A stretch of DNA of 64,000 nt from Leptotrichia sp. oral taxon 218 (GTDB taxonomy: Bacteria; Fusobacteriota; Fusobacteriia; Fusobacteriales; Leptotrichiaceae): assembly GCF_018128225.1 (NCBI RefSeq), contig NZ_CP072377.1, positions 2,046,001-2,110,000 on the forward strand, written 5' to 3'. This document shows positions 13,899 through 20,107 of this stretch, piece by piece (position 1 is the stretch's first letter; each line of letters starts with the position of its first letter). The notes beneath the pieces were generated by a model. It ran no database searches and had not been told where the DNA came from. It saw nothing but the letters and a program-made list of their open reading frames with translations. Both the position numbers and the translations under genes were made by a program.

Positions 13899-13960
13899 TT
13901 TTTACTTTTTTCCTTTCTTAAACTTAGTTTCTTTTCAATAACTTCTAGTATTTTACAAGT

Positions 13961-13989
13961 ATTATATACAATATTTAGACAAAAGTCAA
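13961..13989 (-). promoter_or_regulatory. Sigma-70-type promoter for rpmH
   Basis: On the minus strand TTGACT (13984-13989) and TATAAT (13961-13966) are separated by exactly 17 bases, directed toward rpmH about 60 bases further on. This is a near-consensus housekeeping promoter at the left edge of oriC. Confidence 0.85.
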
Positions 13990-14023
13990 GTAAAATCCCT
14001 TTACTAACTTATTAACTTTTTAG

Positions 14024-14608
14024 TTTTCCACAGTTTTCCACAACCTATTATTATAATATATTATATATTATTATATATATATTATTATTATGCAATGTGG
14101 AAATGTGGGAACAATGATGAATAGCGGGTTTGCCAGAGAATAACCTGTGGAAAACTTTTCCCAAAATTGTGGAAAACTTTTTTTCCACAAAGTTTCCCAC
14201 AGGTTTTCCACAATTCGATGTGGAAAACTAAAAAAATGTGGAAAACCTGTGGGAATCCAGTAAAATAGCCTATTCATTTTTATGTGGAAAACTTGATAAT
14301 TTTGGGGTAAAATAGCTATAAACTCAATAAATATAGTATCTAGTGCCTGTGGAAAACTATGTGGAAAACTTTTTGCCAAATCTTGATTATTTATTTTATA
14401 TATGTTATATTCATAATATAAAAATGTATCAAATCTGAAAAAAATGAGAAAAAAATAAAAAAATTGTGGAAAACTCTCTGGTTTTTTTATTTATTTAGTG
14501 AAAAAATAAAAAAATTTTAAAAATGTGGAAAACTAATTGTGGAAAACTATGTGGAAAAAAATTTTTTTGTGGAAAACTCTAAAATTATTGTTTTATTAAT
14601 GTGGAAAA
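14024..14608. other. Replication origin, upstream DnaA-box cluster with AT-rich stretch
   Basis: This is part of the gene-free stretch 13899-14711. By eye it has about 17 copies of TTTTCCACA or its complement TGTGGAAAA, often extended to AGTTTTCCACAA/T, in both orientations. Examples are at 14024, 14034, 14182, 14203 and 14600. Bases 14046-14091 are almost purely A and T and could be the unwinding element. The switch of gene strand and the adjacent dnaA fit a bidirectional oriC. The usual DnaA box is TTATCCACA; the T at position 3 is the local consensus here. Confidence 0.88.
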
Positions 14609-14711
14609 GTAAAATTTTAATTTGGATAAAAATTAATAAAACACTGTAAAAAAGCGACTTTTAAGGCTATTGATTCATTTGAAATAATTTAATTAAAAGG
14701 GAGATGAAACT

Positions 14712-16085
14712 GTGCAGGAAGCTGAAAAATTGTGGGAAAAGTTAAAAAAATTAGTGAAAAAAAGTGTGGAAGAAGTGATTTTTGAAACATTTTTTCAAAA
14801 TGTCAAAGCTGTGGAAATTGTGGATAATACACTTCTTTTGTCCTGTAATTCAAAAGTTATCAAAAAAAATGTGGAAAACTATAGAGCTGAAATGGAAGAA
14901 ATTTTAGAGCTTGTAACTGATGAAAAAATGGAAATAAAAATAGAGGTCAAAAAACAAAAAAAAGAAATAAAACAGCCAGAAATAAAGATTTTTACCACAA
15001 ACGAAGTGGAAAAACCTAAAATTAAAAATGACAAAATGAAAAATACTGGTTTAAATCCAAAACATAGGTTAGATAACTTTGTAGTTGGCGAAAATAGCAG
15101 ACTTGCATACAATGCATGCCTTGCTGTCGTAAAAAATCCCAAACCTGTCTATAATCCACTTTTTATTTTTGGAAGTTCTGGACTTGGAAAAACCCATCTT
15201 ATGCAAGCTGTGGGAAATGAAATTCTTGAAAAGAATCCTGGAAAAAGAGTATATTATTCCACATCTGAAGAGTTTGCAAATGAATTTTTTAAAGTTTTGA
15301 ACAGTGGAAGAATCCAGAATTTTAGGGATATATTTAGAAATTTGGATGTGCTTTTGTTAGATGATATTCAATTTTTCGAAAAAGTTTTTGGACGTGGAGA
15401 AGGCACAGTGGAAGAGGAATTTTTCCACACTTTTAACAAACTGCAGGAATTGGGAAAGCAGATTATTATGATAAGTGACAAGTCTCCAAAAGAAATAAAA
15501 AATTTGTCTAAAAGGTTAGAATCTAGGTTTTTATCGGGACTTACGGTAGAAATTCAGCGTCCTGGCTTTGAAACTAGAATGATGATTTTAAAAAATATTG
15601 CGAAAAATCAAGATATAGAAATTGGTGATGATATTTTGGAATATATTTCAGATGCAGTTGTTTCAAATGTGAGAGAACTTGAGGGAATTTTGACAAATTT
15701 GAATGCTAGAGCAAAGTTGTTAAATGAGCCTATTACAATAGATCAAGTTCAGGAGATGCTATCACATAATATAAAAAGGGAGCGTTCAAAAATGACAGCT
15801 CAAAAGGTAATAGAAATGATATCATCGCATTATGGCGTAAGTGTGGAGGATATAAAATCCAAAAAAAGACAAAAAAAGATAGTAGAATCTCGGCAAATTG
15901 CAATGTTTATATTAAAGCACAATGTTGAGTTAGATTTAAGTTTAACCGCTATTGGTGGACTTTTTGGCGGAAAGGATCACAGTACGGTAATAAGCAGCAT
16001 TAGAAAAGTGGAAGAATTAAAGGAGCAAAATCTTGTGTTTAAAAAAGAAGTGGAAAATTTGTATAAAAAGATATTTAAAGTATAG
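14712..16085 (+). CDS. dnaA: Chromosomal replication initiator protein DnaA
   Basis: The 457-residue protein has domain I (1-80), a Lys-rich linker (about 80-112), AAA+ domain III with Walker A GSSGLGKT (154-161) and Walker B LLLDDIQ (214-220), and domain IV with the box-contacting signature GGKDHSTVISS near the C-terminus. It starts at GTG 14712 after AAGGGAG. DnaA-ATP binds the TTTTCCACA boxes on both sides of its own gene; such boxes probably also autoregulate dnaA. A short insertion (VFGRGE) follows Walker B. Confidence 0.98.
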   Translation: MQEAEKLWEKLKKLVKKSVEEVIFETFFQNVKAVEIVDNTLLLSCNSKVIKKNVENYRAEMEEILELVTDEKMEIKIEVKKQKKEIKQPEIKIFTTNEVEKPKIKNDKMKNTGLNPKHRLDNFVVGENSRLAYNACLAVVKNPKPVYNPLFIFGSSGLGKTHLMQAVGNEILEKNPGKRVYYSTSEEFANEFFKVLNSGRIQNFRDIFRNLDVLLLDDIQFFEKVFGRGEGTVEEEFFHTFNKLQELGKQIIMISDKSPKEIKNLSKRLESRFLSGLTVEIQRPGFETRMMILKNIAKNQDIEIGDDILEYISDAVVSNVRELEGILTNLNARAKLLNEPITIDQVQEMLSHNIKRERSKMTAQKVIEMISSHYGVSVEDIKSKKRQKKIVESRQIAMFILKHNVELDLSLTAIGGLFGGKDHSTVISSIRKVEELKEQNLVFKKEVENLYKKIFKV

Positions 16086-16106
16086 AGTTTTTTTTTTATT
16101 TAAAAT

Positions 16107-16667
16107 GTGGAAAAAAATTTAAAAATGTGGAAAACTATGTGGAAAACTTTTTGAAAATTTAGAGAGTTTTCCACAATGTGGAAAACTTTTTCCACATTGA
16201 AAAAATAGTTTATATAGTATTAAATAAAAATTAATTTAAAATAAAAAAAATAAAAAAATTTTTGGAATTGTGGAAAACTTTTTAGAAAAAATTGTGGAAA
16301 AAAGAAAAGTTTTCCACAATTTATGTCTTTTAATAGAATGAAATAACCCCTTATTTTAAAGGGAAAAAATAAAAAATGTGGAAAACTATGTGGAAAACTG
16401 GATTTAGAAAATGTGGAAAACTCACAAAATTTATTTAGGATGTGGAAAACTTCAAAAAATTTAAAATATAATTGAAAATAATTATAATTTTAGTTAAAAA
16501 TAAAAAAAAATAAATAAGTTTTCCACAATATTAAAAAATAATAAAATTTAAAAAGAAATTTTTTTGGGTAGTTAAAACCCTTTAAAAATGGGAATAAATT
16601 GGAATTGTGGAAAACATGTGGAAAACTATGTGGAAAAGTTTTCCACAATAAAAATGAGTTTTCCACA
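16107..16667. other. Replication origin, downstream DnaA-box cluster
   Basis: This is the main content of the gene-free stretch 16086-16841. About 19 copies of TTTTCCACA/TGTGGAAAA lie in both orientations, some as back-to-back inverted pairs (for example around 16629-16646). Spacing is irregular. Bases 16668-16841 are AT-rich leader sequence for yaaA with no obvious hairpin. Together with the upstream cluster it makes a bipartite origin with dnaA in the middle. Confidence 0.85.
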
Positions 16668-16841
16668 ATTGAAATTTAAACATTAATTTTATTAATGATT
16701 GAAAAAATTTGGCAAAAATTTTTTACTTAAAGTATAAATTTTTAGGAATTTGTGGTATAAATATATAAATAGCAAAAATTAAAAAATAAAGAATAAAAAA
16801 TCAAAAACTAAAAAATAAAAAATAAAAAAAGGAGAAGGAAA

Positions 16842-18994
16842 ATGAAAATACATACAGAATTTATTAAATAGTGCAAGAACACTCGCAACTCTAGTCGTGA
16901 GATGAATTGCACGAAAATTTTAGTAAGCATATAGGGAAACTTGTATGTAGACACAGAAAGAACTGTGCAACAAAGAAACTGAATTGCTGGGAACTCTTAA
17001 AGCTAGTATGACCACAACATAATACCTTCGTTCAAATATGGTATAAGTGTGAAGGTAGCGAAAGCAGAAAAAATATACTAGATGGTGCAAGGTTAAATCC
17101 TAAACATTATGATAATAGACAATCAGCAGCTAAGCCTGAAAAGGAAAGTTCAACGACTATCCCTCGTGAGGGGAGTACAATACAAGCGATTGGTATTGGA
17201 AGTGGTTTCGCCTAAGTCCTTGAAATAGGATATGGATAAGATATAGTCTGTGCTTGTTAGAGATAACAAGAAGTTCAAGGCTAATCTCCTTAATTTATTA
17301 AGGAGTACATATGCCATGAGAACTGCATAAGTAGTAGCGTACTTATGTGAACGACGCTTCCCGCTGTTGTGGGGTTTTAAAAACTTTAAAAATATTTAAA
17401 AATAAATAAAAATATTACTTTTTTGACAGATAAAATGTAGAATACATGGTATAATATCTCTGATGAAAAGGAGGTGATTATATATGTATTTAACATTAAA
17501 ACAACAAGTAAAACATCTTAGTAAAAAGGAGTTTAGAAATTTAAAATATTTATCTCATATAGCCAAGAATTTAACTAATGAAGCTATATATAATATTAGA
17601 CAACACTATTTTCAAAATAAAAAGTATTTAAGTTATAATGAAAACTATAAAATGCTTAAAAATAGTGAGAACTATAAAAAATTAAATTCTAATATGGCTC
17701 AACAAATTCTAAAAGAAGTAGACGGAAGTTTCAAATCATTTTTTGGACTTTTAAAACTTGCTAAAAATGGTCAATATGATAATAAGAAAATAAAATTACC
17801 TAAATATCTTGCTAAAGATGGATTTACAACTCTTGTTATAGGTTTTGTTAGATTAAAAGATGATATTCTGATAGTTCCTTATTCAAATTCGTTTAAGAAA
17901 ACTCATCAGGAAGTTAAAATTAAGCTGCCACCAGTATTAAAAGGCAAGAAGATAAAAGAGATTAGAATAATACCAAAACAACATTCTAGGTACTTTGAAA
18001 TTCAATATACTTATGAGGTAGAAGAAGTTCAAAGGGAATTAAATAAAGAAAATGCACTAGGAATTGATTTAGGTATAAACAATCTTTGTACTTGTGTTAC
18101 AAATTCTGGAGCTTCATTTATAATAGATGGTAGAAAATTAAAATCAATAAATCAATACTATAACAAGACAAATGCAAAGCTGCAAAGCATAAAAGATAAG
18201 CAAAAGACCTCCCGCACAACATTAAGGCAAAAGAGAATAGCTAGAAAGAGAAATAATCGTATAGAAGATTATCTTTCAAAAGCAGCAAGAATAATAATAA
18301 ATTATTGTCTTAATAATGATATAGGAAAACTAGTTCTAGGATGTAACGAAGATTTTCAAAGAAATTCAAATATAGGAAGTATAAATAATCAAAACTTTGT
18401 AAATATACCATATGGGAAATTAAGAGATAAACTAATATATCTATGTAAACTATATGGAATAGAATTTAAACTGCAAGAAGAGAGTTATACATCGAAAGCA
18501 AGTTTCTTTGATGGAGATGAGATTCCAATATATGATAAAGAAAATCAAAAAGAATATATATTCAGTGGAAAAAGGATAAAAAGAGGACTATATCAAACAA
18601 GTAAAGGCTATCAATTAAATGCAGATTGTAATGGAGCATTAAATATTTTAAGAAAAAGTAAAGTTGTGGACTTAAGCGTCCTATACAATAGAGGTGAGCT
18701 GAACACACCTAAAAGAATAAGGGTAGTGTAAAGCTATCAAACTTCTTAGAAGATTTTTGAATATTTTTAAAGATTTTAGAACCCTGCGACTTTAGTCGTG
18801 GGAGGTTCAGAAAATTAGATCAATTATTAAAGTGGGAAAATTTGGTTGAATCAGGAGCTATGGCAAAAATGGTTATTTTAAATGGCGATGTGAAAGTAAA
18901 CGGAGAAATCGAAACTAGAAGGGGGAAAAAAATATATCCAGGTGATGTTGTAGAATTTAATGGAGAAAAAATTGTTGTGGAAAAAGAAGTTTAA
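16842..18994 (+). CDS. yaaA: S4-domain RNA-binding protein YaaA, split by an IStron (exons 16842-16864 and 18811-18994)
   Basis: Exon 1 encodes MKIHTEF plus two bases of the next codon; it starts after GGAGAAGG. Joining base 16864 to 18811 gives a continuous 68-residue protein (MKIHTEFIKLDQLLKW... ending VVEKEV) with the S4 pattern SGAMAKMVILNGDVKVNG and RRGKKIYPGDVVEF. This matches the small S4 protein encoded between dnaA and recF in Firmicutes. Without splicing, translation stops at the TAG at 16869 after nine residues. The function of the YaaA family is poorly known; RNA binding is inferred from S4. Confidence 0.88.
16865..17400 (+). ncRNA. Group I self-splicing intron catalytic core
   Basis: Conserved segments appear in order: P (GAATTGCTGGGAACTC, 16981-16996), Q (AATCAGCAGCTAAGCC, 17121-17136), R (GTTCAACGACTATCC, ending 17162) and S (AAGATATAGTCTG, about 17238-17250). 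P7 forms between GACTAT (17155-17160) and ATAGTC (17243-17248). P1 pairs exon UUUAU with GUAAG at 16923-16927, giving a U-G pair at the splice site. P10 can pair UUUU (16918-16921) with the first AAAA of exon 2. A GTGCAA/TTGCAC stem-loop sits in the P1 loop. A CTCCTTAA/TTAAGGAG hairpin (17287-17306) lies beyond P7. The subgroup is not determined. Confidence 0.88.
17423..17455 (+). promoter_or_regulatory. Promoter inside the intron for tnpB
   Basis: An extended -10 (TGGTATAAT, hexamer 17450-17455) lies about 28 bases before the tnpB start. TTGACA occurs at 17423-17428, but the 21-base spacing is long, so the extended -10 probably dominates. An exceptionally good ribosome-binding site, AAGGAGGTGATT, precedes the ATG at 17484. 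tnpB could therefore be expressed independently of the dnaA-yaaA transcript. Confidence 0.6.
17484..18731 (+). CDS. tnpB: IStron-encoded TnpB, RNA-guided nuclease-like protein without zinc ribbon
   Basis: The 415-residue protein has a basic N-terminal region (about 1-185) and a RuvC-like domain: RuvC-I GIDLGINNL with Asp195, RuvC-II region LVLGCNEDF with Gly286 where most TnpB have Glu, and RuvC-III NADCNGALNI with Asp381. An EESYTSKASFFDGDEIP segment (332-348) offers Glu332/Glu333 as a possible displaced catalytic acid. The CxxC...CxxC zinc ribbon is absent. It belongs to the TnpB type with EESYTSKAS, seen in clostridial elements. TnpB proteins use an omega-RNA from the element right end to cut DNA next to a TAM. 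The frame is intact. Confidence 0.9.
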   Translation: MYLTLKQQVKHLSKKEFRNLKYLSHIAKNLTNEAIYNIRQHYFQNKKYLSYNENYKMLKNSENYKKLNSNMAQQILKEVDGSFKSFFGLLKLAKNGQYDNKKIKLPKYLAKDGFTTLVIGFVRLKDDILIVPYSNSFKKTHQEVKIKLPPVLKGKKIKEIRIIPKQHSRYFEIQYTYEVEEVQRELNKENALGIDLGINNLCTCVTNSGASFIIDGRKLKSINQYYNKTNAKLQSIKDKQKTSRTTLRQKRIARKRNNRIEDYLSKAARIIINYCLNNDIGKLVLGCNEDFQRNSNIGSINNQNFVNIPYGKLRDKLIYLCKLYGIEFKLQEESYTSKASFFDGDEIPIYDKENQKEYIFSGKRIKRGLYQTSKGYQLNADCNGALNILRKSKVVDLSVLYNRGELNTPKRIRVV

Positions 18995-19018: not shown

Positions 19019-20107
19019 ATGTATTTAAGTCAAATAAATTTTAATAATTTTCGTTGCCTAGAAGATGATAAATTGGTGTTTAGTAAGGATTTTAACTTGA
19101 TTTATGGAAAAAATGGACAAGGCAAGACTTCACTTATTGAAGCCATTTATTTTCTTGCGACAGGAAAAAGTTTTAGGACAAAAAAAGTTAAAGAAATGAA
19201 AAAATATAATTTTCATAGAGCAATTGTCTTTGGAAAATTTGAGACAAAGAACGGAAATAAAATTATTGCAATTGATGTCAACGAGGAAAAAAAAGATTAT
19301 TATATAAATAAAAGAAAAAGTAAATATATAGATTATATTGGAAATTTAAATGTAATTTCTTTTATTCCAGAAGATATTGAAATAATTATGGGAAATCCCA
19401 ATATTAGAAGAGGTTTTTTTAATTATGAAATTTCCCAGGCAAGAAAAGATTATTTGAAATCAATCGTAAGTTTTGAAAAAATATTGAAAGTTAGAAATAA
19501 ACTTATAAAAGAAAAAAAAACTTATGAAGAAATTTATAAGATTTACAACAAAAAATTTATTGAAGAAGGTGTGAATATTATTATTCACAGAAGGGAATTT
19601 ATAAAGAAAATATCGGACTTGCTAAATTTTAATTATCAGAAACTTTTTGATAAAAAAGCGAAGTTAAAGTTAAAATATGATTGTTTTTTGGGAATTGTAG
19701 AAAAAAAAAGCAGATCCGAATTAGTGGAAAAATTTAAAGAGCAATGTTTAAAAAAAATGGAACGGGAAAATTTTTTGGGTTACAGTTTGCTAGGACCGCA
19801 AAAAGATGACTTTGTCTTTGAGTTAAATGGAAAAAATGCGAAATCTTATTCTTCTCAAGGAGAAAAAAAATCAATAATATTTTCACTAAAAATTTCTGAG
19901 ATTGATATTTTGATGGCGGAAAAAAATGAATATCCAATTTTTGTCATGGATGATATTTCTTCGTATTTTGATGAAATTAGAAAAAATAGCATTTTGGATT
20001 ATTTTAAAAATAAAAAAATTCAGTGTTTTATAACTTCGACACAAGATTTAAAAATTTTTGGGAAACAATTTATTGTTGACGGTGGAAAAACTGAAGCGGG
20101 GGAATAA
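19019..20107 (+). CDS. recF: DNA replication and repair protein RecF
   Basis: The 362-residue SMC-like ATPase has Walker A GKNGQGKTS near residue 30, the signature SYSSQGEKKS near 280, and Walker B YPIFVMDDISSYFDE. It loads RecA at gaps through RecFOR. It follows yaaA by 24 bases, so transcription from the dnaA side would have to pass through the IStron. dnaN, which usually lies between dnaA and recF, is not present here. Confidence 0.96.
   Translation: MYLSQINFNNFRCLEDDKLVFSKDFNLIYGKNGQGKTSLIEAIYFLATGKSFRTKKVKEMKKYNFHRAIVFGKFETKNGNKIIAIDVNEEKKDYYINKRKSKYIDYIGNLNVISFIPEDIEIIMGNPNIRRGFFNYEISQARKDYLKSIVSFEKILKVRNKLIKEKKTYEEIYKIYNKKFIEEGVNIIIHRREFIKKISDLLNFNYQKLFDKKAKLKLKYDCFLGIVEKKSRSELVEKFKEQCLKKMERENFLGYSLLGPQKDDFVFELNGKNAKSYSSQGEKKSIIFSLKISEIDILMAEKNEYPIFVMDDISSYFDEIRKNSILDYFKNKKIQCFITSTQDLKIFGKQFIVDGGKTEAGE

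What the first reader, a model, noticed from the sequence alone, without database searches (positions are those of the whole stretch)
16842..18994. IStron (group I intron + tnpB) inserted in yaaA between dnaA and recF
The element interrupts a conserved replication-locus gene and carries every signal needed to remove itself from RNA: P1 (exon UUUAU with GUAAG), P10 (UUUU with the first AAAA of exon 2), P7 (GACTAT/ATAGTC), P/Q/R/S elements, and omega-G. The predicted splice gives an intact 68-residue S4 protein, whereas unspliced RNA stops after nine codons. IStrons are known mainly from Firmicutes (CdISt1, BcISt1). A copy next to oriC in a fusobacterium-like genome, splitting an apparently retained gene, would extend them. 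The 3' splice site is also the transposon right end, so splicing and omega-RNA formation would compete there.
Basis: partly seen in the sequence, partly recalled or inferred. Interest (0 to 1): 0.92.

Follow-up and report, generated by a model that had tools for sequence, protein, structure and literature searches.

The report
Self-splicing transposon inside yaaA near oriC
A bacterial jumping gene that carries its own self-cutting RNA sits inside a conserved gene beside the replication origin; the kind is already known, but this genome is unusually full of such elements, and two of them split genes the cell probably cannot do without.

Summary
Window 16865-18810 is a 1946-bp group A IStron (group I intron plus tnpB) after TTTAT, ending TCAG, inside yaaA between dnaA and recF. 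Rfam's group I model scores it 58.4 bits, full length. On 20 homologs, 43 of 110 hand-drawn pairs, P3 pseudoknot included, change on both sides. A congeneric species has the empty site with the predicted junction.

The novelty claim does not hold: fusobacterial IStrons, one in Leptotrichia buccalis, were surveyed in 2014.

The genome adds more: 28 copies of this element plus six of a second family after TTGAT. Guide and target covary (TTTAT/GUAAG, TTGAT/GUCAG). All 28 copies judged intragenic are sense; of six core-less derivatives five lie between genes, one at a gene's start. Copies split single-copy gmk (through its ATG) and topA, so splicing in vivo is the economical inference. IS605 elements with their own tnpA and similar ends could mobilise the IStrons in trans.

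Splicing was not observed. New member of a known kind.

The parts
16842..16864 (+). yaaA exon 1 (first 7 codons and 2 bases), ending in the target TTTAT (16860-16864)
   Evidence: same junction uninterrupted in G005
16865..18810 (+). Group A IStron, 1946 bp, from TAAATAG to TCAG
   Evidence: ends shared with the other copies of the genome
16860..16927 (+). P1: exon UUUAU plus intron UAAA (16860-16868) with UUUAGUAAG (16919-16927; guide GUAAG 16923-16927)
   Evidence: third exon base U-A 14 and G-C 6 of 20
16882..16901 (+). Left-end subterminal palindrome (CTCGCAACT / AGTCGTGAG), resembling that of the genome's IS605 elements
16923..17270 (+). Group I intron core (P2 to P9) as matched by RF00028; P3 = 16975-16980 with 17204-17209, P4 = 16984-16989 with 17124-17129, P7 = 17155-17160 with 17243-17248
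17349..17354 (+). GAACGA after P9.2, the point where the IS part is joined in published IStrons
   Evidence: sequence; motif from PMC4227781 section 14
17484..18731 (+). tnpB, 415 aa, no stop inside
18783..18802 (+). Right-end palindrome (CCTGCGACT / AGTCGTGGG), probable end of the omega-RNA scaffold
   Evidence: sequence; 23 of 25 bases with the IS605 right end; omega-RNA role inferred
18811..18994 (+). yaaA exon 2 (S4 domain), stop codon included; its first bases would also be the omega-RNA guide (inferred)

Best explanation
A group A IStron of the TTTAT type moved into yaaA as single-stranded IS200/IS605 DNA, most likely with TnpA supplied in trans by the genome's own IS605 elements. In the yaaA transcript the group I ribozyme pairs exon UUUAU with its guide GUAAG, cuts after that U, uses the terminal G at 18810 as omega-G and joins 16864 to 18811, so a normal S4-domain protein is made. 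TnpB with an omega-RNA from the right end would instead cut the empty site and so keep the element in place. Shown: anatomy, conserved and covarying ribozyme core, empty sites, sense orientation, split single-copy core genes. Inferred: splicing in the cell, trans mobilisation, omega-RNA use.
For: RF00028 58.4 bits on the window copy, 50.3 on the gmk copy, 72.5 on the topA copy. 43 of 110 pairs change on both sides against 24.1 +/- 2.5 in shuffles, 0 of 500 as high. Exon/guide covariation. Empty sites in G005 for yaaA, gmk and topA. All 28 copies judged intragenic (22 of 28 of family one, 6 of 6 of family two) are sense. Core pairs: at most 3 of 60 broken in each of 34 copies, while tnpB is broken in 6 of 28 and 3 of 6. 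One guanylate kinase match and one topA match in the genome, both split.
Against: No RNA data. Three Rfam scans of longer stretches missed the core, and the genome-wide RF00028 search listed only 17 of the 34 copies, 12 over the cut-off. One in-frame TTG inside the element could start an unspliced gmk product. P10 is not conserved. One core-less derivative lies at the very start of a gene. Part of the sense bias comes from replication orientation.
Confidence: 0.9

Rival explanations
1. The element is an IS200/IS605 transposon whose intron part no longer splices; yaaA is simply broken here.
For: No RNA evidence; yaaA exons 2 of G000 and G005 diverged mostly before the insertion could be dated, so their conservation (16 synonymous, 2 non-synonymous changes) does not prove present function.
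Against: The window copy has 60 of 60 scored core pairs and 58.4 bits. The same element splits single-copy gmk. Intragenic copies are all sense.
Confidence: 0.05
2. IStrons here move by TnpB alone, as was suggested in 2014 for elements without ORF A, and not by TnpA in trans.
For: None of the four Y1-transposase genes of the genome lies inside an IStron; 22 of 28 family-one copies keep a full tnpB.
Against: Two tnpA+tnpB elements (461779 and 1993653) follow a TTTAT, have a similar left palindrome (51 of 65 aligned columns with the gmk copy, 46 of 65 with the window copy) and share 23 of 25 right-end bases with the window element and 34 of 34 with family two. 31 of 34 IStrons run with the fork, as single-strand TnpA insertion predicts (positions; replichores from GC skew; test). 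Their own left boundaries were not checked against an empty site.
Confidence: 0.15
3. The sense bias reflects only insertion into the lagging-strand template combined with co-oriented genes, not selection for splicing.
For: 31 of 34 elements are co-directional; with-fork coding TTTAT sites are sense in 74% (all stretches) or 85% (window) of cases.
Against: 20 with-fork and 2 counter-fork intragenic copies of family one, all sense: joint probability 5e-5 to 1e-4 under that null; background uses plain ORFs of 100 codons or more and stretches chosen around insertions. Core-less derivatives avoid genes in 5 of 6 cases, the sixth at a gene start.
Confidence: 0.1

Closest known systems
Group A IStrons FnISt1, FnISt2 (Fusobacterium nucleatum) and LbISt1 (Leptotrichia buccalis), Tourasse 2014
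   Same: IA2-type group I intron joined to an IS200/IS605 ORF B, no ORF A, insertion after TTGAT/ATTAT/TTTAT, TCAG end, no target duplication
   Different: 28 copies here (plus 6 of a second family) against 1-6 for the fusobacterial ones and 9-24 for CdISt1 in that survey. The second family resembles the G001 (probably L. buccalis) element, about 88% over the intron
CdISt1 of Clostridioides difficile
   Same: Group A architecture; splicing shown experimentally according to PMC4227781 section 20
   Different: Firmicutes element; no sequence of it was fetched or compared here
Autonomous IS605-type elements (tnpA 134 aa + tnpB 478 aa) of the same genome, 461779 and 1993653
   Same: TTTAT in front, similar left palindrome, right end TTCAG
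   Different: They carry tnpA and another tnpB; RF00028 listed nothing at these places, though that search listed only 17 of 34 IStrons

Membership tests
Group A IStron | Group I intron with P3/P7 core, P7.1 and P7.2, P9 region | tested here: met
   RF00028 58.4 bits; helices and covariation
Group A IStron | Insertion after TTGAT, ATTAT or TTTAT | tested here: met
   TTTAT in 27 of 28 family-one copies, one with an extra T; TTGAT in 6 of 6 family-two copies
Group A IStron | 3' end TCAG | tested here: met
   26 of 28 by pattern, the other two read; family two, four ends and two
Group A IStron | No target duplication; intron-less allele has exon 1 joined to exon 2 | tested here: met
   yaaA, gmk and topA in G005; other sites not checked
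Group A IStron | IS200/IS605 ORF B present, located 3' of P9.2 after a GAACGA-type motif | tested here: met
   tnpB; GAACGA at 17349-17354
Group A IStron | Inverted-repeat stem-loop of 6-10 bp around the ORF region | not tested
   not looked for
Group A IStron | Self-splicing | not testable with these tools
   needs RNA
RNA-guided TnpB family | Family profile | tested here: met
   NF040570 205.1 bits, cut-off 100
RNA-guided TnpB family | RuvC catalytic residues and guided cleavage | not tested
   no PDB relative found at E 0.001; residues only looked at by eye
TnpA-mobilised IS200/IS605 element | Subterminal palindromes shared with a tnpA-bearing element, same target, bias towards the lagging-strand template | tested here: met
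   movement itself not testable here

The most novel reading that the evidence does not exclude
This Leptotrichia depends for life on ribozyme splicing: IStrons of two different families must be removed from the mRNAs of its only guanylate kinase and its only topoisomerase I, and the native gmk ATG exists only in spliced RNA (one in-frame TTG in the element being the sole alternative seen). The IStrons are spread by TnpA borrowed from IS605 elements with matching ends.
Probability: 0.55. Interest if true: 0.72.

Novelty: new member of a known kind. Interest (0 to 1): 0.55.

Why it matters
The kind is known, but the genome is a natural experiment on it. Thirty-four IStrons of two families and six core-less derivatives let one see that the ribozyme core, not tnpB, is what is kept inside genes. 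The covariation of exon and guide between families shows that the DNA target of the transposon and the RNA guide of the ribozyme change together. A tnpA-bearing IS605 with the same target and similar ends offers an answer to a question left open in 2014, how IStrons without ORF A spread. Split gmk and topA make in vivo splicing testable with one RNA-seq run.

Tried and rejected
Rfam scans of the whole window, of 2.4 kb and of a 3.6-kb locus missed the group I core; a 401-base scan found it. P10 as a fixed element: rejected as a requirement (AAAA in 5 of 26 copies). Purines are enriched in the first four bases of exon 2 (12 of 28 own copies, 15 of 46 with relatives, against 146 of 1050 background sites; p 2.4e-4 and 0.0019), but a downstream control stretch drifts too (13 of 46, p 0.023; own copies alone 7 of 28, p 0.18), so P10 stays open. 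Codon phase: 8, 2, 12 for phases 0, 1, 2 in family one (counted by hand) against background 433, 256, 360, chi-square by hand about 4.9 with 2 d.f., not significant. The genome-contig scan with TnpB gave only 4 distant loci, one with a group I core upstream (L135). The solved-structure search gave nothing. A first P3 assignment hit the wrong GAAACT in the P2 loop and was corrected.

Full report
WHAT IS THERE. The stretch lies between dnaA (14712-16085) and recF (19019-20107). A gene begins ATGAAAATACATACAGAATTTAT at 16842, is broken after TTTAT (16860-16864) and goes on at 18811 with 184 nt that encode an S4_2 domain. Between them lie 1946 bp ending TTCAG, with a 415-codon tnpB at 17484-18731. 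Unspliced, translation stops after nine codons. No ATG, GTG or TTG stands in frame with exon 2 inside the element (17 open codons). A congeneric species, G005, has the empty site: ACAGAATTTAT directly followed by AAAGTTAGATCAG. The two species differ there by 1 non-synonymous change in exon 1 and by 16 synonymous and 2 non-synonymous changes in exon 2. yaaA matches were found in 95 of 100 genomes, the own one included. Thirty of these loci were returned and compared; in the 29 that are not the own one the segment is contiguous across the junction.

IT IS A GROUP I INTRON. RF00028 matches 16923-17270 with 58.4 bits over all 253 model positions, above the curated 50. Scans of longer stretches missed it. 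The genome-wide search listed 17 of the 34 copies, 12 over the cut-off; the gmk and topA copies were not among them but score 50.3 and 72.5 bits when given alone. I aligned 20 introns: 7 of the own genome and 13 of eight relatives. They are the rows left after near-identical ones (over 95%) were removed from 52. Not among the 52 are the eight search loci L096-L103, one match without a start, and copies that my pattern missed, three own ones included. I drew the structure by hand from the window copy. Of 2091 cells 94.7% pair; 43 of 110 pairs change on both sides (shuffles 24.1 +/- 2.5, 0 of 500 as high); slid controls give 33-42% paired. P3 is GAAACU/GGUUUC in one family and CUACUC/GGGUAG in the other, 120 of 120 cells paired. 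P7 never varies and so says nothing. Drawing the structure from one row inflates the percentage paired more than the two-sided changes.

EXON AND GUIDE CHANGE TOGETHER. In the set of 52, all 42 TTTAT introns have GTAAG. Of the 10 TTGAT introns 7 have GTCAG by pattern; the other three, read separately, have GTCAG once and GTCAA twice. In the 20-row alignment the third exon base pairs U-A 14 times and G-C 6 times.

THE GENOME. It is one contig of 2,172,496 bp with 28 copies of this element. TTTAT precedes 27; the 28th has one extra T. TCAG ends all 28. A second family has six copies of 1779-1783 bp after TTGAT with another tnpB. G001 has a contig of 2,465,610 bp, the published length of the L. 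buccalis type-strain genome (abstract), so the genus is very likely Leptotrichia. Matches to the window's tnpB at E 1e-100 or better, broken copies included: 27 in the own genome, 15 in G003, 6 in G012, 4 in G002, 3 each in G004, G005 and G022, 1 in G008, none in G001 (nine genomes asked).

WHERE THEY SIT. Family one: 20 copies lie in genes whose two halves are open in one phase, one splits a start codon (gmk), and one stands at the very end of a mazG-like frame and is ambiguous; four lie just upstream of a start and two elsewhere between genes (yggS and the acyltransferase-like case read by hand). Family two: 6 of 6 in genes. So 28 of 34 are judged intragenic, and these 28 are sense. Names borne out by calls: recJ (both halves), queA, mannose-6-phosphate isomerase (both halves), a CTP_transf_like gene, an AAA_2 ATPase; topA (both halves), gmk, sbcC, dprA, yggS, a GMP_PMI-type gene. 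The others (EamA, GH108, DUF4250, MFS, secretin, methyltransferase, acyltransferase, mazG-like, virB6-like, sigma-like) are by eye and come from no call; Pfam gave nothing for the virB6-like, sigma-like and SbcC pieces.

IS THE SENSE BIAS ONLY REPLICATION? GC skew of 35 stretches places the replichores, with oriC taken at dnaA. 31 of 34 elements run with the fork, as expected if the lagging-strand template is the target (known for IS608, recalled); 41% of TTTAT sites have that orientation. Given the fork, 74-85% of coding sites are sense by chance, and 5-13% of counter-fork ones. Twenty with-fork and two counter-fork intragenic copies of family one, all sense, then have a probability of 5e-5 to 1e-4. 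The background uses plain ORFs of at least 100 codons and, apart from the window, stretches chosen around insertions.

A NATURAL CONTROL. Six derivatives keep transposon ends but lack the intron core; for one (823993) no right end was found. Checked on both strands, five have no long frame running through, and one (1593045) stands 7 codons after a possible start of a 594-codon frame that also has its own ATG behind the element. Against 28 of 34 core-bearing copies, 0 of 6 intragenic has P 2.4e-4; counting the doubtful one as intragenic, P is about 0.0036 (worked out by hand). Conversely tnpB is broken in 6 of 28 family-one copies, all six judged intragenic, and in 3 of 6 family-two copies, while each of the 34 copies has at most 3 of 60 core pairs broken.

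GENES THE CELL NEEDS. At 449179 the element splits AT|G of gmk. The empty site in G005 reads AAGGTGATTTTTATGAAAGG, and the genome has one match to the guanylate kinase query. Unspliced, one in-frame TTG within the element could serve as a start, so dependence on splicing is likely but not strict. At 1103699 a family-two copy splits topA (234 and 594 open codons; halves match positions 1-222 and 236-623 of TIGR01051). The genome has one match to the topA query, and G005 has the uninterrupted junction. dprA, upstream of topA, carries another copy. That gmk and topA are essential is general knowledge, not tested for this genus.

HOW IT MOVES. Four Y1-transposase genes were found, none inside an IStron. 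Two of them (461779, 1993653) belong to elements with their own tnpB that follow a TTTAT. Their left palindrome resembles that of the IStrons (one of them against the gmk copy: 51 of 65 aligned columns, with a 31-base stretch differing at one base; against the window copy 46 of 65), and they end TTCAG (34 of 34 right-end bases with family two, 23 of 25 with the window element). The other two tnpA genes lie in elements whose ends I did not find. Trans mobilisation is the simplest account. Tourasse 2014 thought it unlikely because no IStron with intact ORF A was in the same genomes, but the donor here is not an IStron.

WHAT IS KNOWN. Tourasse 2014 defines group A, lists three fusobacterial IStrons and gives copy numbers up to 24. 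PMC1924603 (passages) reported five in F. nucleatum. Zedaveinyte 2024 was seen only in a reference list. In the held library no paper since 2021 holds both IStron and TnpB, and the only evident match for Leptotrichia with group I intron is the 2014 survey (listing); most subscription papers are not held.

VERDICT. A real and very probably functional IStron, a new member of a known kind, more interesting for its genome than for its single site.

Noticed in passing
window 13900-14712 and 16086-16841: 17 and 19 copies of TTTTCCACA/TGTGGAAAA (36 of 48 in the window) flank dnaA, and no TTATCCACA: a dense DnaA-box-like array of a variant nonamer at oriC.
   Followed up: partly
G000:C1 605302+, 250541+, 1446163-, 1089123-, 1106921-, 1103699- (L085-L089): A second IStron family after TTGAT with another tnpB; two copies sit in the neighbouring genes dprA and topA.
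   Followed up: yes
L090, L091, L092, L093, L094, L095 (1938986-, 823993+, 1593045-, 428991+, 1946987-, 18014+): Short derivatives with IStron or IS605 ends but no intron core; four of the right ends found lie 255-320 bp from the left end pattern, some close to rRNA or tRNA genes.
   Followed up: partly
L186, L187 (461779-, 1993653-): IS605-type elements with tnpA and tnpB, TTTAT in front and palindromes like those of the IStrons: candidate donors of TnpA.
   Followed up: partly
L135 (Selenomonadaceae MAG): A tnpB 62% identical to the window's with a group I core (62.6 bits) upstream: an IStron outside Fusobacteria.
   Followed up: no
window 17484-18731: By eye this TnpB lacks the CxxC pairs that the second family shows and has G where other TnpBs have the RuvC-II glutamate; it recalls a rearranged-RuvC subgroup (recalled, not tested).
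   Followed up: no
G000:C1 1098276-, 1768509-, 1810329-, 1626424-: Four family-one copies sit just upstream of a ribosome-binding site or start, in sense, as introns or promoters of 5' leaders.
   Followed up: no
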